Part shown: positions 40,903 through 53,714 of the stretch, piece after piece | Layout: every line of letters starts with the position of its first letter | Position numbering within the stretch: the first letter of the stretch is position 1 | From: Legionella quinlivanii | GTDB lineage: Bacteria; Pseudomonadota; Gammaproteobacteria; Legionellales; Legionellaceae | Direction: 5' to 3' | NCBI RefSeq assembly: GCF_900461555.1 | Contig: NZ_UGOX01000001.1 | Location: forward strand, 695,501 to 759,500 | DNA: 64,000 nucleotides | The notes under the pieces: model-generated | The model's database searches: none | What the model saw: the letters and a program-made list of their open reading frames with translations, nothing else | What the model was told of the DNA's origin: nothing | Program-made: the position numbers and the translations under genes

Positions 40903-43900
40903 ATGAAATCATTTATCCCGTGGTTTTGTCTGGTAGCTGCAACTGCAGCGAATACTGTACAGGCTGCTGACGGAATCGACGCTTATCGTCGCGGCAATTA
41001 TTTTCTGGCTGCCAAAAGCTTTGCGGAGGAATCAGGCAAGGATCCTGTAGTCGAGTATTACATGGGAAGAATGCGGCTTTATGGTTATGGAGAGCTGAAA
41101 AATAACACATTGGCGCTTCGTTATTTTACTGATGCGGCCCAAAAAGGGTATATGCCGGCTCAGGAGTTACTCGCTCGCTACTATCTGCAAAAAGGAAAAG
41201 ATCCGGCTCAGGCATTTCAGTGGTTTAAAAAATTGGCCGATGCCGATAACACTGCGGCGCAGATGTATTGTGCTGCAGCCTATATCTATGGGTTTGGGGT
41301 TAAACAAAACCCCGATATGGGACGCCGCTATTTCATTGAGGCGGCAAAAAACGGCAATCCGATAGCACAATTTGCCGTTGCTGCTCATTTTCTGGATAGT
41401 AGGGACAGCAGAAATAAAAAATTGGGTTTGATATGGTTAAATAAGTCTGCGGAACAGAATAATCCCAAAGCCTTGGTAAAACTTGGTGAATTATATGCTG
41501 CTGGCGGAATTGTTACACGCGACCTGGTGAAAGCCAGGCAGTTAATGGAACAGGCGGCCAATCAGAATTATACTCCGGCGATGGTATCTTTAGGGGAACT
41601 CGCTCAAAAGGAAAGCAACTTTGCCGAGGCCAAAAACTGGTTTAGCAGAGCGGCAGAGGCTAACAATATTGATGCCCAGTTTGATCTGGCCAAGTTCTAT
41701 CTAACGGCTACGAATCCGCAGCAGGATGTTGACTCTGGCTTTATGTGGATGCTAAAGGCTGCACAAAATGGTTCAATGGATGCTCAAAAGTCTTTGTCCG
41801 AAATGTATAAGAAGGGACAAGGGGTTGCGGTGGATGAAAATCTGGCTGCTCAATGGAAGCAGACAGCAGAAGCAAATGCCAGCAAAAAGATTGAGCTTGA
41901 ACCTCAAATCGCTGCCGCTCGCTGGTTAAGTAACGATACCGAAGAGCAATTTAAGGGTGTGTACCAGCTCGGCGGGATTTACAGCGCCTGGAATAATCCG
42001 CAGGCGCTAAAAGAAAATAATTATAATCCTGCACCGCAAATGGATGCGGTGACCCGTAAGCATTTGTATCAGCCCCAGTTTGTGATGGCTCAACCGGATA
42101 CCATTCCAATTAATGATTATTTTGATGTACTGGCTCCAATGCTGACTGGTGCTCATTCCAATGACTGGTCATACCCTCGCTACCCAATTGATAAGCAAAT
42201 TGCTTCGCTGATTCGTCATGACTCAATGGTCCTCAAGCATAAACAAGGTTTAGCGCCAGTGGATGATGGAGCATCCTATCTGCAAAAAGATGAGGAAGAA
42301 GATTCACCTGATTATCTGGCACAGCAAACATTGGGGTGGAAGCAACAGGCCAATATGCAAGCCGTTCTCAGTGAAATGTATAACCAGGCCATTCTTGGCA
42401 ACTCCTCTTCACAGTTTGAAATTGGTCAGTTATATCAATATGGTATCGGTGTCGTAAAAAATATTGATCAGGCGATTATTTATTATCAATTGGCAGCCGC
42501 ACAGCAGGATGTAAGGGCAGAATATAATCTTGGCGTGATTTATCTCGAAGGAAAAACCAATCCGGTTGATTATCAGAAAGGGATTGAATGGATGACCGAT
42601 GCCGCATTTAAAGGCAATGCCTATGCGCAATATGTGCTGGCTAACATCTACGAAAAAGGCCTGATCGATCCAAACGGCAATGAAATGATTAAGCCCAATC
42701 ATCAACAGGCGATGGCGATGTATTATCTCGCTTCCGCGAATCATTTTGGTGAAGCAGAATACCGCCTGGCCGATTATCTGGTGAAGGAAAAACAGTCCGG
42801 TTTAAGTCAGGCCGCTAAAAAGCATCGCAGCGATCTGATCAAACGTCTGTATGCGGGTGCTGCCAAACAAGGTGTGGCAGAAGCAATCCTGCCGCTGGCT
42901 TTCTATAACGCGATGGACAGCGATCCCAAAAAGCAGGAACAAGCGTTTGAAACAGCACGCCGGGAAGCTCGTAATGGGAATTCCGAAGCCGCTCTGTTGC
43001 TGGGCATGATGTATGATAGGGGTATTGCAGTCTCCCCTAATCAATACGAAGCCTTATACTGGTATCAGCAGGCGACTACCAATCCGGTGAGCGCGTTTAT
43101 ACTGGGAACCTATTTTACTGAAGGCAATGGCGTTGCCAAGGATACTGAAAAAGGTCGTGCGCTGTTACAGGAATCGGCCGATGCCGGATTTTCCTATGCC
43201 AGTCTGAATTTAGCTGTTCTTAAACATGATGTGGGTGAATATTTCCTGACCGAACTCGATAACGCCAGAAAGCAAGGCAACAGTAAAGCAGGTTTATTGC
43301 TCGCTGACTATTTCCTGCAGCAAGCGAATGATCCAGAAAAAATGAAGCAGGCCCGTGAAATTTATGAGTACTTTGCCGGTAAGGGTGATAAAGATGCGCA
43401 ATTAAAACTGGCGTTTCTTTATGATCGTGGTCTGGGTGGCGAGGCGAACAGCGAAGTGGCAGCGCATTGGTATACAGAAGCAGCTGAGCAGAACCAGCCA
43501 ATCGCTCAATTTTTGCTGGCTCAACTTTATCAAATGGGACGAGTCGGTAAACAGCCTGACTATGAAATGGCAAAAAAATGGTACAAGCAGGCACAAGCCC
43601 ATTCTCCCTACGCTTCGGTAGCGCTTGGTTTTATCTATGACACTGTAGATGATGACTATGTCAATGCAGCGGATAATTACAGCCGTGCCGCGGCCACCGG
43701 TGATGCCATTGGTCAGTATAACCTTGGTCTTCTCTATGAAAACGGAAAAGGGATGCCAGTTAATCCTGAAAAGGCCAGAGAGTATTTTCAACAATCAGCC
43801 GAGCAGGGGTATGGCAAGGCGATGACCCAGCTGGCCGGGCTCTACTTTAATGGAATTAATGGCATTCGTGATGAGCAACAGGCATTGCACTGGTACAAGA

Positions 43901-44517
43901 AAGCTGTCGCCGCAGGCGATAGCGGAGCAATGTACCAGCTTGGCCTGTTATCCGAGACAGGAGTGGCCACAAAACTTGATTTTCCCAATGCAGTGAGTTA
44001 TTACCAGCAAGCCTCTGATCTTGGGAATGAAAAAGCGCAAATGGCTTTGGCTAGAATGTATCAGTATGGTATCGGGGTACAGAAAGATATTCAGCATGCT
44101 GCAGACATCTACAAGGGGCTCGCGGCTAACAGTAATGCCTATGCTCAGTATCAGCTGGCTATGATGTATATTGATGGCCAGTTGGGTGAGCCCTCCCTCG
44201 CCCAAGGCAAGCCATTGTTGGTTAAAGCCAGCAGCAATGGCAGCAATCAGGCTGAAACTATGCTCCGCTGGCTAAATGCCCAGCAGGAACAAAAGCTCAG
44301 TTTTATTGAGCCCCTGCAATTGAACAAAGCCCCTGTGCTGGCCGGACAACCTGCGGAGTTGATGTATATGGATGCTCTGAATGAATGGAATCGTGGTGAT
44401 GAAACCCTGTCCCGTATGATTCTTGATCGTCTGATGACCCAATTCCCGCATTATGTTCCAGCAAAAAAGGTCTATGAGCAATTGAATCAGCAAAATAAAG
44501 CGCCTGATCTGGGCTAG
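40903..44517 (+). CDS. enhC: EnhC, Sel1-repeat periplasmic virulence protein
   Basis: 1204 residues, matching the ~1200 known for EnhC. A signal peptide ends near VQA (residue 21). The rest is more than 20 Sel1-like TPR repeats with consensus A...LG.LY..G.GV..D...A..WY..AA, in two blocks separated by a non-repeat linker (about 330-490). In L. pneumophila EnhC inhibits the lytic transglycosylase SltL, limiting release of peptidoglycan fragments sensed by the host, and promotes intracellular growth. GAGGGAG precedes the ATG. It completes the operon with enhA and enhB. Confidence 0.95.
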   Translation: MKSFIPWFCLVAATAANTVQAADGIDAYRRGNYFLAAKSFAEESGKDPVVEYYMGRMRLYGYGELKNNTLALRYFTDAAQKGYMPAQELLARYYLQKGKDPAQAFQWFKKLADADNTAAQMYCAAAYIYGFGVKQNPDMGRRYFIEAAKNGNPIAQFAVAAHFLDSRDSRNKKLGLIWLNKSAEQNNPKALVKLGELYAAGGIVTRDLVKARQLMEQAANQNYTPAMVSLGELAQKESNFAEAKNWFSRAAEANNIDAQFDLAKFYLTATNPQQDVDSGFMWMLKAAQNGSMDAQKSLSEMYKKGQGVAVDENLAAQWKQTAEANASKKIELEPQIAAARWLSNDTEEQFKGVYQLGGIYSAWNNPQALKENNYNPAPQMDAVTRKHLYQPQFVMAQPDTIPINDYFDVLAPMLTGAHSNDWSYPRYPIDKQIASLIRHDSMVLKHKQGLAPVDDGASYLQKDEEEDSPDYLAQQTLGWKQQANMQAVLSEMYNQAILGNSSSQFEIGQLYQYGIGVVKNIDQAIIYYQLAAAQQDVRAEYNLGVIYLEGKTNPVDYQKGIEWMTDAAFKGNAYAQYVLANIYEKGLIDPNGNEMIKPNHQQAMAMYYLASANHFGEAEYRLADYLVKEKQSGLSQAAKKHRSDLIKRLYAGAAKQGVAEAILPLAFYNAMDSDPKKQEQAFETARREARNGNSEAALLLGMMYDRGIAVSPNQYEALYWYQQATTNPVSAFILGTYFTEGNGVAKDTEKGRALLQESADAGFSYASLNLAVLKHDVGEYFLTELDNARKQGNSKAGLLLADYFLQQANDPEKMKQAREIYEYFAGKGDKDAQLKLAFLYDRGLGGEANSEVAAHWYTEAAEQNQPIAQFLLAQLYQMGRVGKQPDYEMAKKWYKQAQAHSPYASVALGFIYDTVDDDYVNAADNYSRAAATGDAIGQYNLGLLYENGKGMPVNPEKAREYFQQSAEQGYGKAMTQLAGLYFNGINGIRDEQQALHWYKKAVAAGDSGAMYQLGLLSETGVATKLDFPNAVSYYQQASDLGNEKAQMALARMYQYGIGVQKDIQHAADIYKGLAANSNAYAQYQLAMMYIDGQLGEPSLAQGKPLLVKASSNGSNQAETMLRWLNAQQEQKLSFIEPLQLNKAPVLAGQPAELMYMDALNEWNRGDETLSRMILDRLMTQFPHYVPAKKVYEQLNQQNKAPDLG

Positions 44518-44782: not shown

Positions 44783-46282
44783 TCATAACTTTCGTTTTCT
44801 CGTTAACAAATTCTCGATCTGATGCAACAGATCGCCGCTATCCTTAAAACAAATATCAGCACTTACATAAAACAAAGGCTGGTTTTTTAACCCCAAGCGG
44901 TCTTGGGGATCTTCAACCAGGATGGGAGTTGCCCCCTTGCCTTCCAATAAGAGAACCGGATGGGTATAGAATTTAATCTTACTGGTTCTGGTTAGCTGGC
45001 ATATCGAGCTGCCGTGCCAGGGTTGGACAGGATCTCCCTGTCCTGCGGTGGTTAACAAGGCTAACTGACCGCGCTTTGCATGAATAGTCCAGCGAATAGC
45101 ATCAGGAAAACAGACGAGGACAGGATCATCATCTAAATCTCTGTCGCTTCTGATTTCAGCAATATAATGAATAGCCGCCAACCAGGCTTCCTGCAGCATT
45201 GCCTGCCGTAAATCTTCCTGCTCTTTGTCTGCTGTTTGATAAGGTTTAAAAATGCGGCGCATAATTTCCGTGTACAGCCGGTCATATTCCATGCCGTGTA
45301 TAAGCGCATAATTTTGTAAGCACTGGTAGGAAATGGTATACAACAGCGACTTGAAAAGAGGAACAAATCGGCCTTCTGCATAATCAGTTTCGGGATCAGG
45401 ATCACGTGCGATAGCATCATTTAAGGTCTGCGTCATTGCCAAGGGATTCAAAATGGGAATCATTACTTCACTGTATAACTGAATGACCTGATTTCTAATA
45501 CTATTTTTCTGTAACCACAGTGTCTTGGGCAGCGACTTTACAATGTCTTGCTGGTAGTCGGCTATCTCAACATAGTCTCCAATTTTTAATTGATCAATCC
45601 ACCAGTTTAGCCGCTGCTGATAGTGATGAATATTCTCAAGCGGCTCATTTAAAAAGCGGTTAAATCGGCTTCCGTCTGAAATCACTGTAAATTTGGCCAG
45701 ACGTGGCGGCGCCGAAGTCTGCTCCCCATAAATAAGGGTGATGGTTCTGGCTATTTCGGCCAGGCTCAGTAAAAAATTGACTTCCGATAAATCCGGCAGT
45801 ATGCCTCGGCTTTTTAGCGGCGAGGACGACTTATAGGGAAGCGCAGGAATGACCATTTTAACCGGCTGTTTGTTTTTAATCAGTTCTTTAATCTGAGCGG
45901 CCAAAGCCAGGCGCGAGTAATTGCTTTTACGCCCTTTCAGGAACTGGCGATCAAACATCACCTCTGCAATACATTCTGCTGTTCCAATATCCCTTGCCTC
46001 ATTCAGCCCATACTCCCTGAAATAGCAAAGCACTCTTTTTTTTACAGCAGCAACTCGTTCTGTTACAAACTGTTGCGATGCGTTTAGAAGCACGGGGATT
46101 AAGCCATTAAACATCCAGTCAGGAGAAACATAGGTAGCGCGCTTTAAAAATGCTTCTGAAGTGTATAAATCTAACTCGCTATTCCCATTAATTTTATCCA
46201 TAAAATGAGCGCTGATTACGGCCTCATTTTTCTGATCCAGACCTACCTGGCAAGTCGTTTTTTGAGGGCTGGTTTTGTTCAT
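44783..46282 (-). CDS. Isocyanide synthase homologue (PvcA/DIT1 family)
   Basis: 499 residues. The core (about 140-230) matches the DIT1/PvcA family: ALPYKSSSPLKSRGILPDLSEV followed by TLIYGEQ and the SDGSRFNRF motif with YQQRL after it. These correspond to the family's P(F/Y)KSxNPxKxxGxxPDxxE and SDGxxF signatures. PvcA enzymes make an isonitrile on an aromatic amino acid using ribulose 5-phosphate. The protein is longer than PvcA (~330), with an extra N-terminal ~130 and a C-terminal domain. ATGA overlap with the upstream FMN oxidase shows co-translation. No Fe/2-oxoglutarate PvcB neighbour is present. Confidence 0.8.
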   Translation of the reverse strand: MNKTSPQKTTCQVGLDQKNEAVISAHFMDKINGNSELDLYTSEAFLKRATYVSPDWMFNGLIPVLLNASQQFVTERVAAVKKRVLCYFREYGLNEARDIGTAECIAEVMFDRQFLKGRKSNYSRLALAAQIKELIKNKQPVKMVIPALPYKSSSPLKSRGILPDLSEVNFLLSLAEIARTITLIYGEQTSAPPRLAKFTVISDGSRFNRFLNEPLENIHHYQQRLNWWIDQLKIGDYVEIADYQQDIVKSLPKTLWLQKNSIRNQVIQLYSEVMIPILNPLAMTQTLNDAIARDPDPETDYAEGRFVPLFKSLLYTISYQCLQNYALIHGMEYDRLYTEIMRRIFKPYQTADKEQEDLRQAMLQEAWLAAIHYIAEIRSDRDLDDDPVLVCFPDAIRWTIHAKRGQLALLTTAGQGDPVQPWHGSSICQLTRTSKIKFYTHPVLLLEGKGATPILVEDPQDRLGLKNQPLFYVSADICFKDSGDLLHQIENLLTRKRKL

Positions 46283-47343
46283 CCTGGCCGACCAATAAAT
46301 GGAGTATAATTTTTAATATCCTGAATCGTCCTGCATCCAGTCAATTTCATTGCCAGGGCAAATTCATCCTTTAATAATTCTAACATGTTGACCAGCTCAT
46401 TTTTGCCGCCAACCGCCATTGCCCATAATACCGGCCGGCCGATTAGTACCGCGTCTGCGCCAAGAGCCAGCGCTTTAAACACATCGGTTCCTCGCTCTAT
46501 GGCTCCATCGACAAAGACCATCGTTCGACCTGCCGCCGTGCGAACGATATCCGGCAGGGCGGTGATCGCTGATTCGGCTGTGTCCAGTTGACGTCCGCCA
46601 TGATTGGAAACAACGATTCCGGCAATGTTTCTCTGGCAGGCTTCCTCGGCATCTACAGGATTAAGAATGCCTTTAAGAATAATTGGCAGTCTGGTAATCG
46701 ATTGCAGCCATTCTATATCCTTCCACGTTAAGGAGGGATCGAGATGCTCGGTGATAAAATGATAAATCGGCTGCTTGTTGATTTCAGTTTTGAAATTACC
46801 CGTTGTCAGTGACTCTGAAAGAGAAAATTGATTTCGAAGATCACGTTCCCGTTTTCCGCCAACAGGCACTCCAACGGTTAACACAATCGCTTTATAACCA
46901 GCTTGCTCTATCCGGTGAATTAATAATTGCGTTAAGGCTCTGTCTTTAAAAATGTATAATTGGGCCCACAAATGCTCACTTCCGGCCGAACCGGCAATCT
47001 CCTCAAGCGAGCGGTTAGACATACAACTGACTATCAGATTGACCCCGCATTCCTTCGCCGCTACACTGGTGTCCGGCTCGCCTTCCTTGTCAACCAGCTG
47101 ATGAAAGGCCATAGGGGCAATCAATAAGGGAAAAGATAGCCTCGAACCAAACACAGTTACTGACAGGTCTATACTGGATACATCGCGCAGACAACAGGGA
47201 CGAATGCTGATTTCATTGAGAGCCTGTCTATTATTTGATTTGGTGATTTCATCGCAGGCGCCGCCATCGATATAATCAAACACATCAGCCCTAAGCAGGC
47301 TTTGAGCCAACCCTCTGTAATCTGCGACTTTCACTGGATTCAT
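46279..47343 (-). CDS. FMN-dependent alpha-hydroxyacid dehydrogenase/oxidase
   Basis: 354 residues of the LldD/glycolate oxidase family. Motifs: FPLLIAPMAFHQL, LWAQLYIF, LPIILKGIL (Lys contacting FMN), catalytic VSNHGGRQLD (His and Arg) and VFVDGAIERGTDVFKALALGADAVLIGRP. The usual GGAEDE reads GGACDE. It oxidises a 2-hydroxy acid to a 2-oxo acid, or acts on a peptide or carrier in biosynthetic contexts (as MftD does for mycofactocin). Overlap with the isocyanide synthase homologue points to a joint pathway rather than lactate catabolism. Confidence 0.9.
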   Translation of the reverse strand: MNPVKVADYRGLAQSLLRADVFDYIDGGACDEITKSNNRQALNEISIRPCCLRDVSSIDLSVTVFGSRLSFPLLIAPMAFHQLVDKEGEPDTSVAAKECGVNLIVSCMSNRSLEEIAGSAGSEHLWAQLYIFKDRALTQLLIHRIEQAGYKAIVLTVGVPVGGKRERDLRNQFSLSESLTTGNFKTEINKQPIYHFITEHLDPSLTWKDIEWLQSITRLPIILKGILNPVDAEEACQRNIAGIVVSNHGGRQLDTAESAITALPDIVRTAAGRTMVFVDGAIERGTDVFKALALGADAVLIGRPVLWAMAVGGKNELVNMLELLKDEFALAMKLTGCRTIQDIKNYTPFIGRPG

Positions 47344-47471: not shown

Positions 47472-48233
47472 CTACCCTGGTTTTACAAGCAATTGACTGT
47501 TCAACCAGAAATGTAATTTTTGCACGATGTAGGCTGCTGCTTCTTTTTCTTCCATTTTACTGGAAATCTGATCGCAAATTTCCATAAAGGCCGCCCCCGA
47601 CTGGATGGCTTGTATCAAAATGAATTCAAGAGGGGAAAGCTTATAATTTAATACATCAAGCTGGCGCCGCCAAATCAATACAAACTGTGGAGTTTTAAGC
47701 TTTTTAGGCTGACTCTTTCCTGGAGTTTCAATCAGCATCAGGCTATTCCAGTGCATGTCAATAACTCTACAGGAAGGATGAAGATAAAACTTCAGATTAA
47801 GCCATTCTTCTGGCGATAATTTCTGTAAATCAGCCTCACAAAGAAGATCCGCATCATGGCTGGTTATGGCATCCGATTGCGCCCATTCAAAGGCAGCAAT
47901 TTCACTCAAATAAGGTTTCCTGCTATAAGGCAGTGTTTCAAAAAGAAACTGGCTAAGATTTTGTCCGAATAAATCGAGCGAGTAATGGGACGAAGGATAA
48001 GCATGGATATAGTTCCGGCTCATATTATGAAAATTCGAGCCTCCCATTATGGCAACCAGTACAGGATAATCATCCATCAGTGCTTCTTCGAGCCGATTGT
48101 AATATCCATTCGCATAGATTGAAATGCGATCTTCAATAGAGCCGCGCGGCGGCTGACAAAGATGAGGCTTAACAACAGGTTCCAAGGTCAGCATGGAGTT
48201 TTGCAGTGATTCCGAAACTTCCTCAAATTTCAT
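47472..48233 (-). CDS. DUF2063 (BufC/HvfC-type) MNIO partner protein
   Basis: 253 residues. The N-terminal helical DUF2063 domain shows RISIYANGYYNRLEEALMDDYP, a Y.H.YPSSHYSL segment and FLFETLPY..KPYLSEIAAFEWA. The C-terminal half is a smaller winged/beta domain (FVLIWRRQLDVLNYKLSPLE), as in BufC/MbnC-like partners thought to deliver the precursor peptide to the MNIO. Overlap of 11 bases with the MNIO gene indicates a fixed complex. Part of the cluster with the Cys-repeat precursor. Confidence 0.9.
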   Translation of the reverse strand: MKFEEVSESLQNSMLTLEPVVKPHLCQPPRGSIEDRISIYANGYYNRLEEALMDDYPVLVAIMGGSNFHNMSRNYIHAYPSSHYSLDLFGQNLSQFLFETLPYSRKPYLSEIAAFEWAQSDAITSHDADLLCEADLQKLSPEEWLNLKFYLHPSCRVIDMHWNSLMLIETPGKSQPKKLKTPQFVLIWRRQLDVLNYKLSPLEFILIQAIQSGAAFMEICDQISSKMEEKEAAAYIVQKLHFWLNSQLLVKPG

Positions 48234-49086
48234 GTTCCAGCCTCGCTTTTATCGGGGATAAAGAGTTTAGCTTAATTGTCCTTGCGTAGTCTAATTCCTG
48301 CATTAGCTCCTCGAAAGGTGGAATATTATCATCGCGCTCGATGATTGTGGAAACATTTCCAAAGCGTTTCACTGCAGCGGCGTAAAGTTCCCATACTTCT
48401 GGAATGATGGGATGATCATGAGTATCAATAATATAATCCTCACAATTCAAATGACCCGCCAAATGAAATTGCTGGACCCGGTTGACAGGAATAGAATCAA
48501 TGTAGGTCAACGCATCAAAACCATGATTAAAAGCACTGACATAGATATTATTAATATCCAGCAAAATCAGGCAGTCAGCACGATTTGCAATTTCAGTAAG
48601 AAACTCCCATTCAGTCATTTCTGAGGCCTGATAACTGATATAACTGGACACATTTTCCAATAAGAGCGGTCTTTGATAAAAATCCTGCACGTATCTAACC
48701 CGTTTAACGATATGAGAAATCATTTCTTCGGTATAGGGCAGCGGCAGCAGATCATGCATATTACGCTGATGCGCCCCCGTCCAGCAGAGGTGGTCAGAAA
48801 TCCACTTGACCTGAATGCGATCAGCTAACTGTTTAACTCTTTTTAAATACTGTTCATTAAGAGGATCCACATTCCCAATAGACAAAGAAACCCCATGCAT
48901 ACTCATGGGGTAATGTTCACGAATTTTGTCCAGGTAATAAAGCGGCCGTCCTCCGTCAACCAGATAGTTTTCAGTGAGAATTTCAAAGCAATCAATGTCT
49001 GGATGCCGTTCTAAAATATATTGATAATGATCAGGACGCAAACCTAAGCCCATACCAGAGGTATGGGCTGAATTCTTGTTTTCCAT
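48223..49086 (-). CDS. DUF692 multinuclear non-heme iron oxidase (MNIO, BufB-like)
   Basis: 287 residues, full length for UPF0276/DUF692. TIM-barrel metal ligands visible in order: FEILTENYL, MHGVSLSIG, ISDHLCW, LLENVSSY, LLDINNIYVSAFNHG, QFHLAGH, IDTHDHPI and IERDDNIPPF. The His, Asp and Glu residues of these motifs hold the di/tri-iron centre in MbnB and related enzymes. MNIOs oxidatively modify precursor peptides, often at Cys (oxazolone-thioamide, thiooxazole). The gene begins 3 bases after the stop of the Cys-repeat precursor and overlaps its DUF2063 partner. Confidence 0.95.
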   Translation of the reverse strand: MENKNSAHTSGMGLGLRPDHYQYILERHPDIDCFEILTENYLVDGGRPLYYLDKIREHYPMSMHGVSLSIGNVDPLNEQYLKRVKQLADRIQVKWISDHLCWTGAHQRNMHDLLPLPYTEEMISHIVKRVRYVQDFYQRPLLLENVSSYISYQASEMTEWEFLTEIANRADCLILLDINNIYVSAFNHGFDALTYIDSIPVNRVQQFHLAGHLNCEDYIIDTHDHPIIPEVWELYAAAVKRFGNVSTIIERDDNIPPFEELMQELDYARTIKLNSLSPIKARLEHEI

Positions 49087-49089
49087 TGA

Positions 49090-49632
49090 TTAGTAGCTCT
49101 TACAGTTATTCTTATATTTACAAGAGTTTTGATATTTGCAGGAATTGTAACTTTTGCAATTGTTATAGCTTTTGCAGTTGTTGTGACTCTTGCATTTATT
49201 ATAGCTCTTACAGTTGTTATAGCTTTTGCACTTGTTGTAGCTTTTACAGTTATTATAGCTCTTGCAATTGTTGTAGCTTTTACATTTGTTATAACTTTTG
49301 CATTTATTGTAGCTTTTACATTTGTTATAGCTTTTGCATTTGTTATAACTCTTGCACTTGTCATAACTTTTACAGTTGTTGTTGCTTTTGCAATTGTTTT
49401 GACTCTTGCAGCTGCTTGAGCTTTTACAAGAGTTTTTAGATCCCCCGCCGTATCCCGAATCACCTGATCCACCATAACCGCCACTGGAACCGCTATTCTT
49501 GGAGTCTCCTCCATAACCTCCCTGACTGTTATTTGTTCCTCCATATCCTCCTGAATTATTGGGGCTAGCATATAGGCCAGATGTAAAAAGGGCTGCTGCT
49601 GCAGTGGCAATGATGAGACCTTTTTTATCCAT
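49090..49632 (-). CDS. Secreted Cys-hexad repeat protein, putative MNIO-modified RiPP precursor
   Basis: 180 residues from ATG 49632, chosen because GGAG lies 7 bases upstream; an in-frame ATG at 49644 also exists. Signal peptide MDKKGLIIATAAAALFTSG, cleavage near LYA. A Gly/Ser/Asn/Tyr-rich spacer (NNSGGYGG-type) spans about 22-65. The rest is 19 cysteines at an invariant six-residue spacing, consensus CKSYN(K/N). Unlike known bufferins (DUF2282, EGKCG motif), nearly the whole C-terminal half is the repeat. Position 3 bases before an MNIO gene strongly suggests it is the substrate. Likely exported and metal- or thiol-binding. Confidence 0.85.
   Translation of the reverse strand: MDKKGLIIATAAAALFTSGLYASPNNSGGYGGTNNSQGGYGGDSKNSGSSGGYGGSGDSGYGGGSKNSCKSSSSCKSQNNCKSNNNCKSYDKCKSYNKCKSYNKCKSYNKCKSYNKCKSYNNCKSYNNCKSYNKCKSYNNCKSYNKCKSHNNCKSYNNCKSYNSCKYQNSCKYKNNCKSY
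49093..49428 (-). repeat. 18-base coding tandem repeat (Cys-Lys-Ser array)
   Basis: About 19 in-frame units of 18 bases, each encoding a Cys-Lys-Ser-Tyr-Asn-(Lys/Asn) hexad. Variants are concentrated at both ends (CKSSSS, CKSQNN, CKSNNN first; CKYQNS, CKYKNN last) and near-identical units in the middle, the usual sign of internal expansion by slippage or unequal exchange. Confidence 0.85.
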
Positions 49633-49822: not shown

Positions 49823-51889
49823 ATGCCCGATTTTTCTTACCAAACATTAGATAGTCAAGAAATTCCTAAAACATCTTTTGTTGCGAATGGTAAAACTTAT
49901 AATTTTCATACTGAAAATTCTGCTTTTGCAATATTTGAACCTCCCCCGGAGCAATGGGCAGATCATCCTGAGATTCAATCACCCTGGAAAATTCATTTAA
50001 ACGTTCAAAAGGAATCCTTGGCACAGGTCTGGGAACTTGTTCAACCTATGCTGATGGCGAATGACGTTCCGAGCTTTAAGGTTAGCCGTTTGAGTAAGGG
50101 CGAAGGGGTTGATGATAATTCTGCAGCGCGTGTTACTGAGGGAGCTCAGATCACGATTTATATTCAAAAAGGGAAGGAATTTGAATTTAATAACTTAATC
50201 GCTAAAATCGAGCAAAAACTCTTGGCAGAAGGAATACAACCCGGTCAATTTGCAGACAGTGACAGGAAGGTAGGCACGTTTGTTTCAGTGAGGGGTGCTG
50301 GGGTAGTAGGGGGAGAGCATCCTTATCTGAATGCAGATCAAACAGGTAACAATTACAATCCTCATGAACTACAGGATCCTTTTGTGGTTCAGGAGTCCAA
50401 GCTCCAGGCTGATTTTGCTGCCGGCCTTAACCAGTATTTGAAAAGTGATTATGTTCAGGACAGAATTAAAACCGCGATTACCCAGAATGATCCTGGAATG
50501 CTTACCCGATTATTTGATAAGCTGGCTCATCAGGAAAATATCATGGCCTATGGTAATCAACTACTTACTAATACAGAAGCTGCCATCGAAGCAGGTAATC
50601 TGCCAGGCTATCTGAGCCAGTTTTCAAGGGGGAATGCGCAAGTCCTTTTCAATCAGGATATGAGTGATTTACACCCTTCTGTGATTGAGGCAATCGGTAA
50701 GGCTAATTATGACATGCTCATTTTAAACATGGGCAGCAAGAAGGAGTTAGTGACTAAAATTATCCAGGCTACCGTTATCTTTCATACAGCGATTGTTACC
50801 GATGCGATGTATAGTAGAATTGGCATTAAAGAAGAGGAAAAACGTTCTGAAGAGCAAAACGAGGCCCTGGTAAAATTTACCAATGAAATCACAGTTCCCT
50901 CTCAGGAAGTGCAGGTCTCCCTTACCCCTGAAGCGCTTCTTCACAAAGAATTTCTTCCTGAACCCAAGCAAACAGTTGATTTAACCGAAAAAAATCAAGC
51001 TGTGGCAGAGTTGGAAAATCTATTTAGCAATCTGCAAACTGCACAAGATCTGATTAATAGTCAAATTGCCAATTTGGAAAAATGGGGCGAATCCCCCGAA
51101 AGCTCCGCTGCACAAATCCAGGCATTGAAAGGCTTGGATAGAACATTAGGCATGCAAGGAGATAAAATTCAAGAGTCTATTGAGAAATCTGGATTGCCTA
51201 AAATAACGGCAGAGGCACTAAGACAAGACCATGCAAGCTTTATACGAAAGATTGATGATTTTATTGAAAATAAATCGAGTAGTGAAGCCGAAAGAAACAT
51301 GCTGAGCGCTATCGTCTTTGATCAAAAAAGTATCAGCACAAAACAAGAAGCCATTAGTAAACTGGGGAAACTTTACAGTAATTTGGAAGTTGCAGAAAAT
51401 CAGTTGGAAATTCATATCAATAATTTTAAAAAGTGGGGCCATCTAAAAGAAAAACCCGCTATTTTAAAGGAGAAAATTAATCTTCTTGAGGGGCTTAAAG
51501 CTAATTTGGCTATACAAAAAAATGAAATTGCTGAAGAACTTAAAACCCATGTCACTAATCCAGGAAGTACTGCACAAACTATAAATGAAAGCATTGAAAG
51601 GCATAAAGAAACTATCGGGGAAAATTTTAAGAATAATCTCGACTCGGAAGTTTATAATCCAAGGGAAAAAAGACTCCTGGAAATCATATGGACTGGTATT
51701 GTCAGCCTTTTTACAGGATTTCAGGTCAAATATGAACCTAAGGAAGTCAAGGCGGCGAAACAGGACACTACGAATGCCAAAGAGGCTCTGACTGCTCTGA
51801 AAGCAGCTATCGAAAAAGAACCCCTAAATGACCAGCTAGTGAGCCAACATGAGGAAGACACTGTGCCTTTAATTTCTTCCCCAAGTTAG
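49823..51889 (+). CDS. Candidate phosphothreonine lyase effector (SpvC/OspF/HopAI1-like)
   Basis: 688 residues, no signal peptide. The N-terminal ~190 residues parallel the SpvC/OspF fold: WKIHLNV (Lys56, His58), FKVSR (Lys86), ARVTEGAQITIYI (Arg103, Tyr113), then SD....FVSVRG (Arg157) and DPF. These align in order with SpvC Lys104, His106, Lys136, Arg148, Tyr158 and Arg213; the SpvC Lys160 position is Gln115 here. Such enzymes remove phosphate from phosphothreonine of MAP kinases by beta-elimination. Residues ~390-620 form two related coiled-coil units (LENLFSNLQTAQDLI and LGKLYSNLEVAENQL). A host-directed Dot/Icm effector is inferred. Confidence 0.75.
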   Translation: MPDFSYQTLDSQEIPKTSFVANGKTYNFHTENSAFAIFEPPPEQWADHPEIQSPWKIHLNVQKESLAQVWELVQPMLMANDVPSFKVSRLSKGEGVDDNSAARVTEGAQITIYIQKGKEFEFNNLIAKIEQKLLAEGIQPGQFADSDRKVGTFVSVRGAGVVGGEHPYLNADQTGNNYNPHELQDPFVVQESKLQADFAAGLNQYLKSDYVQDRIKTAITQNDPGMLTRLFDKLAHQENIMAYGNQLLTNTEAAIEAGNLPGYLSQFSRGNAQVLFNQDMSDLHPSVIEAIGKANYDMLILNMGSKKELVTKIIQATVIFHTAIVTDAMYSRIGIKEEEKRSEEQNEALVKFTNEITVPSQEVQVSLTPEALLHKEFLPEPKQTVDLTEKNQAVAELENLFSNLQTAQDLINSQIANLEKWGESPESSAAQIQALKGLDRTLGMQGDKIQESIEKSGLPKITAEALRQDHASFIRKIDDFIENKSSSEAERNMLSAIVFDQKSISTKQEAISKLGKLYSNLEVAENQLEIHINNFKKWGHLKEKPAILKEKINLLEGLKANLAIQKNEIAEELKTHVTNPGSTAQTINESIERHKETIGENFKNNLDSEVYNPREKRLLEIIWTGIVSLFTGFQVKYEPKEVKAAKQDTTNAKEALTALKAAIEKEPLNDQLVSQHEEDTVPLISSPS

Positions 51890-51896
51890 GTAACTA

Positions 51897-53714
51897 TCAG
51901 GAGTCGCAGGTAAATGCAGAGGAAACACGCTCTGTTTCATCCAATAGCTCTTTACGCGATGCGTGAACTTCATGCATAAAAAATCTGACTTTTGAAAACC
52001 ATCCTTTGTCCCAGCCAACGTTATTCTTTGCCGTTGTTTCCAGTGCTTCCCAGTTTTTTTCACTTGGTTCACTGGCATATTGTTGCATTGCCTTCATCAC
52101 AGCCACTTTGGGCTTATGTATAACATCTGTCCTGTCGCCGCGATCAAATTTTTGTAAGTAGCTATTAATAGCAGCATTTACTTTGTGTTTAATAATGCCA
52201 ACGCCATTTTTCAAGTCACTGATTTTTTTATTGTTCTGAACAAGTCTGCCTATCAGATTTTCCAGTTCCCGGCTTTTCTTTTCAGGATTCTGAGTAGCAT
52301 CATAGACCTTTTTTGCAGAATGTACTGCTGTCCAATCCGCTGCTGTTGGGTTTGGCTTGCCACAATAAGTCTTTAGTTCTGCATATAAGTCTTTGAGCGG
52401 GGTATCATACTTTTGCTCCTGAATCACTTTTTTATTAGCGCTTAAGATATTACTGAATTTCATATGAGTTGATGTTTCGGTCAACTTGCCCGCTTCAATA
52501 TCTTTCTCCTGCTGACTTAGAATGAGGGCTATAAGGTCTTCGCGTTCTGCTTTCGCGTAAAGCATCTCAGTAGAATAATGTTTTAAGCCGATGCGTAATT
52601 CGTTTATAAACTCTTCCGCTCCATAAATACTCCGCCAGATTTTATCGAAAAAGCTGTCTTTTTGAAGCATTCTGGCTAAATACTCTTCGTCTCCCTCGAT
52701 TTTTTGTGCAATGGTTTCTGTTTTAGAAGAAGATTGATGCAGATTCATGGCCGCATTTTTAGCGTTTAGGAATTCGCTGAGCTCCTTTTTAATTCCCTTT
52801 CTCCAGTTGGAGCTTATGCCGCCCACTTTGGCATCCAGCAAAGCCAGAATTGCTGCCTGCTTCTGTGAGGGATCATCTTCAATTTTCTTGATTAACTGAG
52901 CATAATATTCCACTTCGGTTTTATGATGCTGAATTGCGTGCAGACGTTTTCTTGATCTCAGAAAATCCAGGGCAATTACTGCGTCCAGACTGGCTACTGC
53001 CTGCACACCGCTGTGTGTGTAGCAATTTTGGGGAGCATCCAGATCCTCAATATTATCCAGGAGTTTTATCAGGCAGAAGTCGACAGACTGTTCATTGAAT
53101 CCAGTAAATTTATGATATTGGGCAGCAAGAGCACGCATTTGGCTTTCCTGCTGATTCGTTCTTCCACGAATACGTTTTAATTCATTCCATTGTAAGTAAT
53201 CAGCGGTTTTCTGATTGCCGTACATGATTGCAGAAACCATTCCTGGCTCATTGCCAGTCAGCATGGAGGTTCCTGGCCTGGTAGTTACAGAAACGACTCC
53301 GCCAATTTTACTTTCTTTAGGGTGGGTCGCTGCTTTCACTACCGCATTTTTAAATCCTCGTTTATACAGGGCTTCCGCGACTTGCTGTGCTAGAGGCTGA
53401 GCTCCAAATCCTCCCTCACAAGACACCAATTTGATGGATTTAAGTAGTGACAAGTCTTTACCTTTAAATTGAGCGGCAAGTTTTTGTGACAACTGTCCTG
53501 CTGTTAAATTCCCAATATATTGTCTCGTATCATCACTGTGGGCCAGCAAAATTATTTCTTCTGGTATCTCTCTGCTTCTGACACTAAATTCAAGTAAGGC
53601 AATCTCATTTTTATTTTTATTACTATGTTTAGCCAGGTTTTCCTGAAGCTTAAGTGCTGTTTCCCGCTCTGATTCATCTCCAATATAATAAATTTCTACT
53701 TTTGCTTTACTCAT
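51897..53714 (-). CDS. Candidate caspase-like (C80/clan CD) cysteine protease, effector-like
   Basis: 605 residues, no signal peptide. The first ~170 residues look like an alpha/beta domain with IILLAHSDD (His59) and, after a strand-helix unit (GNLTAGQLSQKLAAQF), IKLVSCEGGFGAQPLA (Cys99). His after one strand and Cys after the next, with 'LVSC', matches the C80 peptidases of MARTX and TcdA/B autoprocessing domains and other clan CD proteases. The remaining ~430 residues are helical and charged. It is convergent with the gene at 49823, stops 7 bases apart. The protease assignment is inference. Confidence 0.72.
   Translation of the reverse strand: MSKAKVEIYYIGDESERETALKLQENLAKHSNKNKNEIALLEFSVRSREIPEEIILLAHSDDTRQYIGNLTAGQLSQKLAAQFKGKDLSLLKSIKLVSCEGGFGAQPLAQQVAEALYKRGFKNAVVKAATHPKESKIGGVVSVTTRPGTSMLTGNEPGMVSAIMYGNQKTADYLQWNELKRIRGRTNQQESQMRALAAQYHKFTGFNEQSVDFCLIKLLDNIEDLDAPQNCYTHSGVQAVASLDAVIALDFLRSRKRLHAIQHHKTEVEYYAQLIKKIEDDPSQKQAAILALLDAKVGGISSNWRKGIKKELSEFLNAKNAAMNLHQSSSKTETIAQKIEGDEEYLARMLQKDSFFDKIWRSIYGAEEFINELRIGLKHYSTEMLYAKAEREDLIALILSQQEKDIEAGKLTETSTHMKFSNILSANKKVIQEQKYDTPLKDLYAELKTYCGKPNPTAADWTAVHSAKKVYDATQNPEKKSRELENLIGRLVQNNKKISDLKNGVGIIKHKVNAAINSYLQKFDRGDRTDVIHKPKVAVMKAMQQYASEPSEKNWEALETTAKNNVGWDKGWFSKVRFFMHEVHASRKELLDETERVSSAFTCDS

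What the first reader, a model, noticed from the sequence alone, without database searches (positions are those of the whole stretch)
47472..49632. MNIO (DUF692) RiPP cluster with an unprecedented Cys-hexad repeat precursor
Seen: a signal-peptide protein with 19 cysteines at an exact 6-residue period (consensus CKSYN(K/N)) ends 3 bases before a full-length DUF692 enzyme, which overlaps a DUF2063 partner. Known: bufferin, methanobactin and related clusters have this precursor-MNIO-partner architecture, and the MNIO modifies Cys in the precursor. Known bufferin precursors carry only a few Cys in EGKCG-like sites. Inference: this is a new precursor class, possibly giving a polymer-like, many-thiooxazole or otherwise modified exported metal-binding peptide.
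Basis: partly seen in the sequence, partly recalled or inferred. Interest (0 to 1): 0.92.

Follow-up and report, generated by a model that had tools for sequence, protein, structure and literature searches.

The report
Long-array Cys-Lys MNIO copper-peptide precursor
A Legionella-type bacterium carries a three-gene cassette whose exported protein is a string of 19 near-identical six-residue cysteine units; it looks like a greatly lengthened version of a known family of copper-buffering peptides rather than a new kind of system.

Summary
A signal-peptide protein (49090-49632, minus strand) has 19 Cys, all 18 gaps exactly 6 residues, every Cys followed by Lys. Three bases later comes an MNIO enzyme of the bufferin-maturase family (NF050167, 379.5 bits, cut-off 310), overlapping a DUF2063 partner. 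'Unprecedented' and 'new class' go too far. In Legionellaceae, 18 of 19 testable loci with an MNIO at least 71% identical carry a Cys-Lys hexad array directly upstream (7-24 units, one with 6); of 68 MNIOs in the next class (58-65%), 60 have an ordinary 6-Cys BufA2 beside them. BufA2's own core is hexad-spaced, seven of ten array relatives score 33-56 bits on the BufA2 model (cut-off 60), and the order CKxxNx beats all 119 position permutations summed over 24 genes. The enzyme has the Asp reported for Cys-Lys MNIOs (PMC12668002). Best reading: a polymer-length, BufA2-related captophorin, probably bearing many 5-thiooxazoles and buffering periplasmic copper. Chemistry and function are inferred. 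Cys and Lys are under strong protein-level selection, and MNIO-linked arrays also occur in Verrucomicrobiota, Acidobacteriota and another gammaproteobacterium.

The parts
49090..49632 (-). precursor gene, 180 aa from the second ATG (184 aa from 49644); signal peptide, Gly/Ser/Asn spacer, 19-unit Cys-Lys hexad array to the C-terminus
49567..49632 (-). Sec-type signal peptide MDKKGLIIATAAAALFTSGLYA (judged by eye, no predictor run)
   Evidence: sequence; similar in relatives
49093..49428 (-). array of 19 CKSYN[KN]-type hexads, the last one cut short as CKSY (18 bp per unit; TRF periods 18, 36, 54)
   Evidence: Cys and Lys codons change only synonymously between relatives
48223..49086 (-). MNIO (DUF692) enzyme, 287 aa; bufferin maturase family BufB; ERDD at the substrate-specificity site
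47472..48233 (-). DUF2063 / PME-type-1 partner, 253 aa
49666..49694 (-). conserved promoter-like block TGAAGATA-N6-CGCTCATCTATTCTT upstream of the precursor, shared in part with hexad relatives

Best explanation
This is a captophorin/bufferin-type RiPP cassette of the Cys-Lys (BufA2) group whose hexad core has been amplified from about 5 units to 19. The MNIO and its DUF2063 partner bind the precursor in the cytosol, most likely through the signal-peptide end, and move along the disordered array oxidising Cys after Cys (expected loss of 4 H per Cys, to 5-thiooxazole). The Sec pathway then exports the product, which acts as a high-capacity Cu(I)/soft-metal sponge in the periplasm. Shown here: cassette, exact repeat, protein-level selection on Cys and Lys, MNIO class, specificity residue, relation to BufA2, co-occurrence. 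Inferred: the modification, its extent, export, copper as ligand, stationary-phase timing.
For: MNIO scores 379.5 bits on NF050167 BufB (cut-off 310), less on HvfB (280.8, cut-off 360) and MbnB (58.3, cut-off 325). Of the 20 Legionellaceae loci with an MNIO at least 71% identical, 18 have the array directly upstream, one (G080) has a degenerate one and in one (G132) the contig ends just before it. None of these 20 MNIOs has a BufA2 match above the cut-off beside it, against 60 of the 68 MNIOs of the 58-65% class (coordinates compared by hand). The 20 enzymes form one clade, SH-aLRT 97 and 99 in two quick trees. ERDD in 20 of 20; PMC12668002 reports Asp at this site in Cys-Lys MNIOs and an AlphaFold model in which it meets the substrate Lys. 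BufA2 model hits of 32.7-56.1 bits on seven of ten relatives; order-permutation control 346.8 against a maximum of 291.5 over 119 permutations. Array dN 0.038-0.080 with saturated dS; in three pairwise comparisons Cys codons show 0 amino-acid changes against 8, 7 and 5 synonymous ones, the following Lys 0 against 6, 11 and 5. 306 of 338 Cys in 25 genes are followed by Lys. In G070 both MNIO and precursor are broken. The mature product has no A, I, L, V, F, M, W, E or R, so a folded hydrophobic core is unlikely. A related MNIO operon in L. pneumophila (GIG) responds to copper and gold, with a weaker response in an rpoS mutant (PMC5413113, abstract and passages).
Against: The window's own precursor hits BufA2 at only 23 bits (cut-off 60), no better than compositional hits to EntC and GvpQ; among relatives such chance hits reach 41 bits (EntB on the G128 array, where BufA2 gives 25), and G002's precursor has no BufA2 hit. 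For the window gene 6 of 119 permutations score as well as the true order; no permutation does so in only 6 of 24 genes, and 39 of 119 do in the worst case, G135. ERDD is not exclusive: the genome's DUF2282-linked MNIO has it too. Four hexad genes lie outside a hexad-class MNIO locus: G129 (array intact, MNIO reduced to a remnant, no partner found), G134 (two genes 3.3 kb from a BufA2-class MNIO) and G135. The '20 in one clade' label rests on identity and includes the degenerate and the untestable locus. PMC12452194 says the chemistry on Buf2 is not identified (same mass loss and 305 nm band only). No accessory gene ties the cassette to metal: none of the window neighbours tested is conserved beyond one relative, and a DoxX gene, frequent in bufferin clusters, lies within 0.4 kb of the cassette in 2 of 20 genomes (G067, G081) and is not found in the window genome; regulators and metal genes were not searched for.
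Confidence: 0.72

Rival explanations
1. Partly modified hybrid: the MNIO converts only some Cys (for example the first units), and the rest act as free thiols, a metallothionein-like sponge with a modified end.
For: Terminal units differ from middle ones (CKSSSS/CKSQNN at the start, CKYQNS/CKYKNN at the end), and the end units are conserved between species while the middle varies. Array length varies: 19, 21 and 20 units in three sister species. Long substrates need iterative processing (discussed in PMC12452194).
Against: The Lys after Cys, the reported recognition feature, is kept in all 19 units, not only at one end; Cys and Lys show no amino-acid change anywhere in the aligned array.
Confidence: 0.3
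2. Multi-core precursor: the array is cut by host proteases into many short thiooxazole peptides that are the real products.
For: Near-identical units and a Lys-rich sequence; PMC12668002 leaves open whether EGKCG products are cut.
Against: None of the window neighbours tested is conserved beside the cassette beyond one relative, though the flanks of the other loci were not scanned for proteases by family; units lack a separate linker.
Confidence: 0.12
3. Unmodified Cys/Tyr/Lys-rich structural or adhesive surface protein; the MNIO neighbour is incidental.
For: Tyr-, Lys- and Cys-rich repeat; an intact array persists without MNIO or partner in G129. Of 53 loci with an in-frame run of four Cys-Lys hexads in the genome-contig scan, 47 have no MNIO in the fetched stretch, so such runs also occur for other reasons.
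Against: Tyr is not general: relatives have G/K, T/N, S or H instead, with Tyr only in some; 18 of 19 testable loci keep the array next to a clade-specific MNIO; G070 has lost both.
Confidence: 0.06
4. A DNA tandem repeat with no protein-level role.
For: 18-bp tandem array with 36- and 54-bp higher periods; number of units varies between species.
Against: dN 0.038-0.080 with saturated dS in the array; no amino-acid change at Cys or Lys; reading frame kept.
Confidence: 0.01

Closest known systems
BufA2 / Buf2 bufferins (NF050166; Cys-Lys captophorin group), incl. the 6-Cys BufA2 of Legionellaceae
   Same: Gene order precursor-MNIO-DUF2063; signal peptide; CKGxNx core with gaps 6,6,7,6; ERDD MNIO (22 of 23 BufA2-class enzymes); BufB family enzyme
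   Different: 7-24 Cys-Lys units, mostly at exact period 6 (one gene has 6), instead of 6 or 12 Cys; no C-terminal ExCxKAGG-like tail (by eye); Gly/Ser/Asn spacer; different promoter block; below the BufA2 cut-off
EGKCG captophorins (oxazolin HvfA, fontiphorin FonA, bulbicupramide MmrA)
   Same: Repeat-built precursor with many Cys, MNIO plus DUF2063, thiooxazole on each repeat (PMC12668002, PMC12538549; sections or passages seen)
   Different: Lys before Cys, 5-residue motif; HvfB-class enzyme. The window genome has such a system of its own at L003 (HvfB 365 bits, cut-off 360; GKC motifs in the precursor by eye)
Buf1 / DUF2282 bufferins and the L. pneumophila GIG operon
   Same: MNIO plus DUF2063 cassette; copper response in GIG (PMC5413113)
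   Different: 4-Cys DUF2282 precursor; present separately in the window genome at L001 (PF10048 4.7e-23)
Methanobactin MbnA/MbnB/MbnC
   Same: MNIO enzyme family
   Different: MbnB score 58 bits against a cut-off of 325; DUF2063 in place of MbnC; signal peptide present

Membership tests
Captophorin / bufferin cassette (MNIO + PME1) | MNIO gene with adjacent DUF2063 (PME1) gene | tested here: met
Captophorin / bufferin cassette (MNIO + PME1) | Cys-rich precursor with signal peptide directly before the MNIO gene | tested here: met
   (signal peptide by eye)
Captophorin / bufferin cassette (MNIO + PME1) | 5-thiooxazole formed on Cys (loss of 4 H) | not testable with these tools
   needs mass spectrometry and NMR
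Captophorin / bufferin cassette (MNIO + PME1) | copper binding or copper protection | not testable with these tools
   no assay; the related GIG operon is copper-responsive (PMC5413113)
Captophorin / bufferin cassette (MNIO + PME1) | DoxX gene nearby (frequent, not obligatory) | tested here: not met
   no DoxX match in the window genome; within 0.4 kb of the cassette in 2 of 20 genomes of the hexad class
Cys-Lys captophorin group | multiple Cys-Lys motifs in the precursor | tested here: met
   19 of 19 Cys followed by Lys
Cys-Lys captophorin group | Asp in the MNIO at the FonB-Phe250 site | tested here: met
   ERDD, 20 of 20 hexad-class MNIOs; 3BWW has ERDF; site matched by motif, not by a structure
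BufA2 equivalog NF050166 | score above the curated cut-off (60 bits) | tested here: not met
   window 23.1; of ten relatives scanned the best was 56.1
BufA2 equivalog NF050166 | common core order CKxxNx | tested here: met
   permutation control summed over 24 genes; weak for the window gene alone
BufB equivalog NF050167 | score above the curated cut-off (310 bits) | tested here: met
   379.5 bits
Buf_EGKCG / oxazolin | EGKCG (Lys-Cys) motifs | tested here: not met
   no EGKCG in the precursor; HvfB score 280.8, cut-off 360
DUF2282 (Buf1) | PF10048 match | tested here: not met
   no Pfam family at E 0.1

The most novel reading that the evidence does not exclude
A tunable polymer captophorin: by repeat expansion Legionellaceae turned a 6-Cys bufferin into a disordered chain, free of hydrophobic residues apart from Tyr, carrying up to about 24 thiooxazoles made by one iterating MNIO. 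Array length sets metal capacity, and a separate, possibly RpoS-type, promoter puts it to use in the stationary/transmissive phase, for instance against amoebal copper. Similar expansions in Verrucomicrobiota, Acidobacteriota and another gammaproteobacterium arose on their own (independence is not shown).
Probability: 0.33. Interest if true: 0.65.

Novelty: new variant of a known kind. Interest (0 to 1): 0.5.

Why it matters
It gives the captophorin field an extreme, almost perfectly periodic Cys-Lys substrate on which to ask how one MNIO processes about 20 sites, what the Lys after Cys does, and whether metal capacity evolves by changing the number of repeats. It also shows all three captophorin groups (DUF2282, EGKCG-type, Cys-Lys) in a single genome, each with its own enzyme (EGKCG type by eye), and a likely evolutionary path from a 6-Cys bufferin to arrays of up to 24 units.

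Tried and rejected
Substrate swap: G134 and G135 seemed to have lost BufA2 and kept only hexad precursors beside a BufA2-class MNIO; rejected, since both carry BufA2 elsewhere. Larger cluster with the downstream FMN-dependent dehydrogenase and PvcA-like isonitrile-synthase genes: rejected, both occur in 1 of 23 relatives' loci, and the PvcA-like gene lies elsewhere in other genomes, about 69 kb away in G002. Structure prediction of the array: tool switched off. Partner against PDB sequences: no hit up to E 1. I had first taken DoxX to be absent from the flanks; a search showed it beside the cassette in G067 and G081, and the text was mended. One search's tally (47 of 143 genomes at E up to 0.001) includes low-complexity chance hits and BufA2; I curated by eye, hexad genes in 22 genomes, one (G080) degenerate; the truncated G070 precursor was left out. 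The promoter patterns were written after looking at the sequences, so their chance expectations are too favourable; a stricter pattern matched 12 of 25 hexad and 0 of 17 BufA2 regions, a third 17 of 25 and 6 of 17. In the tree three rows (L065, L078, L079) bore the BufA2 label by MNIO class although no BufA2 gene was seen beside them; labels them apart. One search also groups the hexad clade with long-branch rows, and one search leaves the fork above it open (87), so its place among BufB enzymes is unsure.

Literature: the searches listed no paper that I recognised as describing Cys-Lys hexad arrays, judged from listings and from the seven papers opened; one search listed 10 of 55 papers, all unrelated texts. 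Table S2 of PMC12452194 (peptides with 1-18 Cys) and Dataset S2 of PMC12668002 could list members and could not be read (supplement cap 0). Seen of the papers: PMC12452194 sections 15 and 21 and passages; PMC12668002 abstract, sections 12 and 13 and passages; PMC13097082, PMC12538549, PMC8692599 and PMC3621798 passages; PMC5413113 abstract, section 14 and passages. The RpoS -10 consensus is recalled, not from a call.
Full report
What is there. On the minus strand, 49632-47472, lie three tightly packed genes: a 180-aa precursor, a 287-aa MNIO (DUF692) enzyme 3 bases later, and a 253-aa DUF2063 protein overlapping the MNIO by 11 bases. The precursor has a signal peptide (by eye), a Gly/Ser/Asn-rich spacer and 19 units of type CKSYN[KN]; all 18 Cys gaps are 6 and all 19 Cys are followed by Lys. 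None of the other 175 ORFs of at least 60 aa in the window has a run of more than two equal Cys gaps. The predicted mature protein (158 aa, cleavage by eye) has no Ala, Ile, Leu, Val, Phe, Met, Trp, Glu or Arg and a computed pI of 9.5, so it is unlikely to fold around a hydrophobic core.

Host. The genome (3.61 Mb, 2 contigs) is unnamed. So it is treated as a Legionellaceae member. It has three MNIO genes: the window's, one followed by a DUF2282 precursor (L001; PF10048 4.7e-23), and one of the HvfB class (L003; 365 bits, cut-off 360) preceded by a small precursor with GKC motifs that I read as EGKCG-type (no family hit). These correspond to the three groups of PMC12668002.

The protein is under selection as a protein. 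Between the window and its two closest relatives the array has dN 0.038-0.080 with saturated dS. Cys codons show 0 amino-acid changes against 8, 7 and 5 synonymous changes in the three comparisons, and the Lys after Cys 0 against 6, 11 and 5. Within the window gene both Cys codons and both Lys codons are used. In 25 hexad genes 306 of 338 Cys are followed by Lys.

Relatives. A scan of 143 Legionellaceae genomes with the MNIO found matches in 83. Short fragments aside there is a gap in identity: 20 enzymes at 71% or more, a broken one near 70% (G070), then 68 at 58-65%, then 51% or less. All 20 loci of the first class were read (window). In 18 of 19 testable loci a Cys-Lys hexad array directly precedes the MNIO; in G080 it is degenerate; in G132 the contig ends before it. 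These arrays have 7-24 Cys-Lys units (6 in G081) of types CKGKNG, CKGTNS, CKSSNS and CKSYNK. Of the 68 enzymes of the second class, 60 have a BufA2 match above the cut-off within about 1 kb, none of the 20 of the first class has (coordinates compared by hand). I read 24 loci of that class: 20 have BufA2 (19 upstream, one downstream of the partner), the window genome's L001 has DUF2282 instead, and three have neither. Of 25 curated hexad genes, 21 lie in the locus of a hexad-class MNIO (two genomes have two each). G129 keeps an intact array beside a 33-aa MNIO remnant, G134 has two genes 3.3 kb from a BufA2-class MNIO, and G135 has one on a 7-kb contig without an MNIO.

Relation to BufA2. BufA2's own core, for instance CKGVNSCKGQSACKTATNSCKGENSCKG in L068, has gaps 6, 6, 7, 6. 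Against the BufA2 model (cut-off 60 bits) seven of the ten relatives scanned score 32.7-56.1, two score 25 and one has no hit; the window scores 23. Compositional chance hits (EntB, EntC, GvpQ, collagen-like adhesins) reach 20-41 bits on the same proteins, so I made a control: a profile of 17 BufA2 cores scores the 24 hexad arrays with at least 6 Cys at 346.8 bits in sum; none of 119 permutations of the five non-Cys positions reaches this (maximum 291.5), and all reversed arrays score below zero. Gene by gene the test is weaker: in 6 of 24 no permutation is as good, for the window gene 6 of 119 are, for G135 39 of 119. The hexad-class MNIOs are one clade in two quick trees (SH-aLRT 97 and 99, no bootstrap). 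All 20 have ERDD where the Histophilus structure 3BWW, annotated only as DUF692, has ERDF; PMC12668002 reports Phe at this site in Lys-Cys enzymes and Asp in Cys-Lys enzymes, where a model suggests contact with the substrate Lys. The DUF2282-linked enzyme of this genome also has ERDD, so the residue is consistent but not decisive.

Beyond the family. 53 of 117 have an in-frame run; 6 of 117 have an MNIO in the fetched stretch: two Legionella and four MAGs, L108, L132 and L176 (Verrucomicrobiota) and L135 (Acidobacteriota; phyla and record titles). In these six the array precedes the MNIO, in L108 overlapping the longest possible MNIO frame. The other 47 runs have no MNIO nearby, so Cys-Lys hexad runs as such are not a mark of this system. 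A protein query over 369 genomes of the class gave matches in 51; 30 loci were read. 18 of the 30 have an MNIO: three with arrays (the window, G101 and, outside Legionellaceae, L207 with 8 Cys-Lys units), 14 with a 6-7-Cys BufA2-like gene, one with no precursor recognised. MNIO-linked arrays are therefore recurrent, not unique.

Surroundings and regulation. None of six other genes around the cassette is conserved beyond one relative in 23 loci. DoxX, frequent in bufferin clusters, matches in 9 of 20 genomes of the hexad class, within 0.4 kb of the cassette in two (G067, G081), and not in the window genome. A block resembling a promoter with a TCTATTCTTAA-like -10 lies upstream of hexad genes: 22 of 25 match CTA[TC][TCG][ACT]TTA against 0 of 17 BufA2 genes (expected 0.8 and 0.5; pattern written after inspection). 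The likeness to RpoS-type promoters is recalled knowledge. The L. pneumophila GIG operon, a related MNIO cassette, is active in stationary phase, induced by copper and gold, and weaker in an rpoS mutant (PMC5413113).

Mechanism. Most likely the MNIO and its partner modify many of the 19 Cys before export, giving a thiooxazole-rich chain that binds copper in the periplasm. Characterised captophorins lose 4 H per Cys to form 5-thiooxazole (PMC12668002); for Buf2 only mass loss and absorbance are reported (PMC12452194). Nothing here shows modification, copper binding or export.

Verdict. A real, strongly selected and striking variant of a known kind: a BufA2-related Cys-Lys captophorin precursor expanded into a long array.

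Noticed in passing
window 44783-47343 (-): FMN-dependent alpha-hydroxy-acid dehydrogenase gene overlapping a 499-aa PvcA/DIT1-like (isonitrile synthase family) gene; strong PvcA-like relatives occur in a scattered set of Legionellaceae genomes, and among the 23 loci checked the pair is beside a hexad cassette only in G006.
   Followed up: partly
window 49823-51889 (+): 688-aa protein, divergent from the cassette, with a match near its N-terminus to the VRP3/OspF phosphothreonine-lyase family (Pfam 28 bits, cut-off 25; NCBIfam OspF 48 bits, cut-off 250) and a weak RamC_N match.
   Followed up: no
window 51897-53714 (-): 605-aa protein with no family above a curated cut-off in Pfam and none listed in NCBIfam; conserved in G006.
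   Followed up: no
window 40903-44517 (+): 1204-aa protein that looks like Sel1-type repeats by eye; not scanned against families.
   Followed up: no
L049 7856-8710 and L053 624-1466: Second MNIO genes near hexad loci with EWDA/EWDT-type residues at the specificity site; a 4-Cys bufferin-like gene precedes the one in L049.
   Followed up: no
L064 (G129): Intact 16-unit array whose MNIO and partner are lost except for a 33-aa MNIO remnant.
   Followed up: partly
L053 6163-8346 and L059 5911-8100: Large (about 730 aa) proteins with a DoxX domain beside the cassette in G067 and G081; PMC5413113 describes a large DoxX-domain protein near another L. pneumophila MNIO cluster.
   Followed up: partly
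L210 and L223: Other proteins of the class with runs of 6-residue Cys period of a different motif (NPCAAK/NPCASK), without an MNIO in the locus.
   Followed up: no
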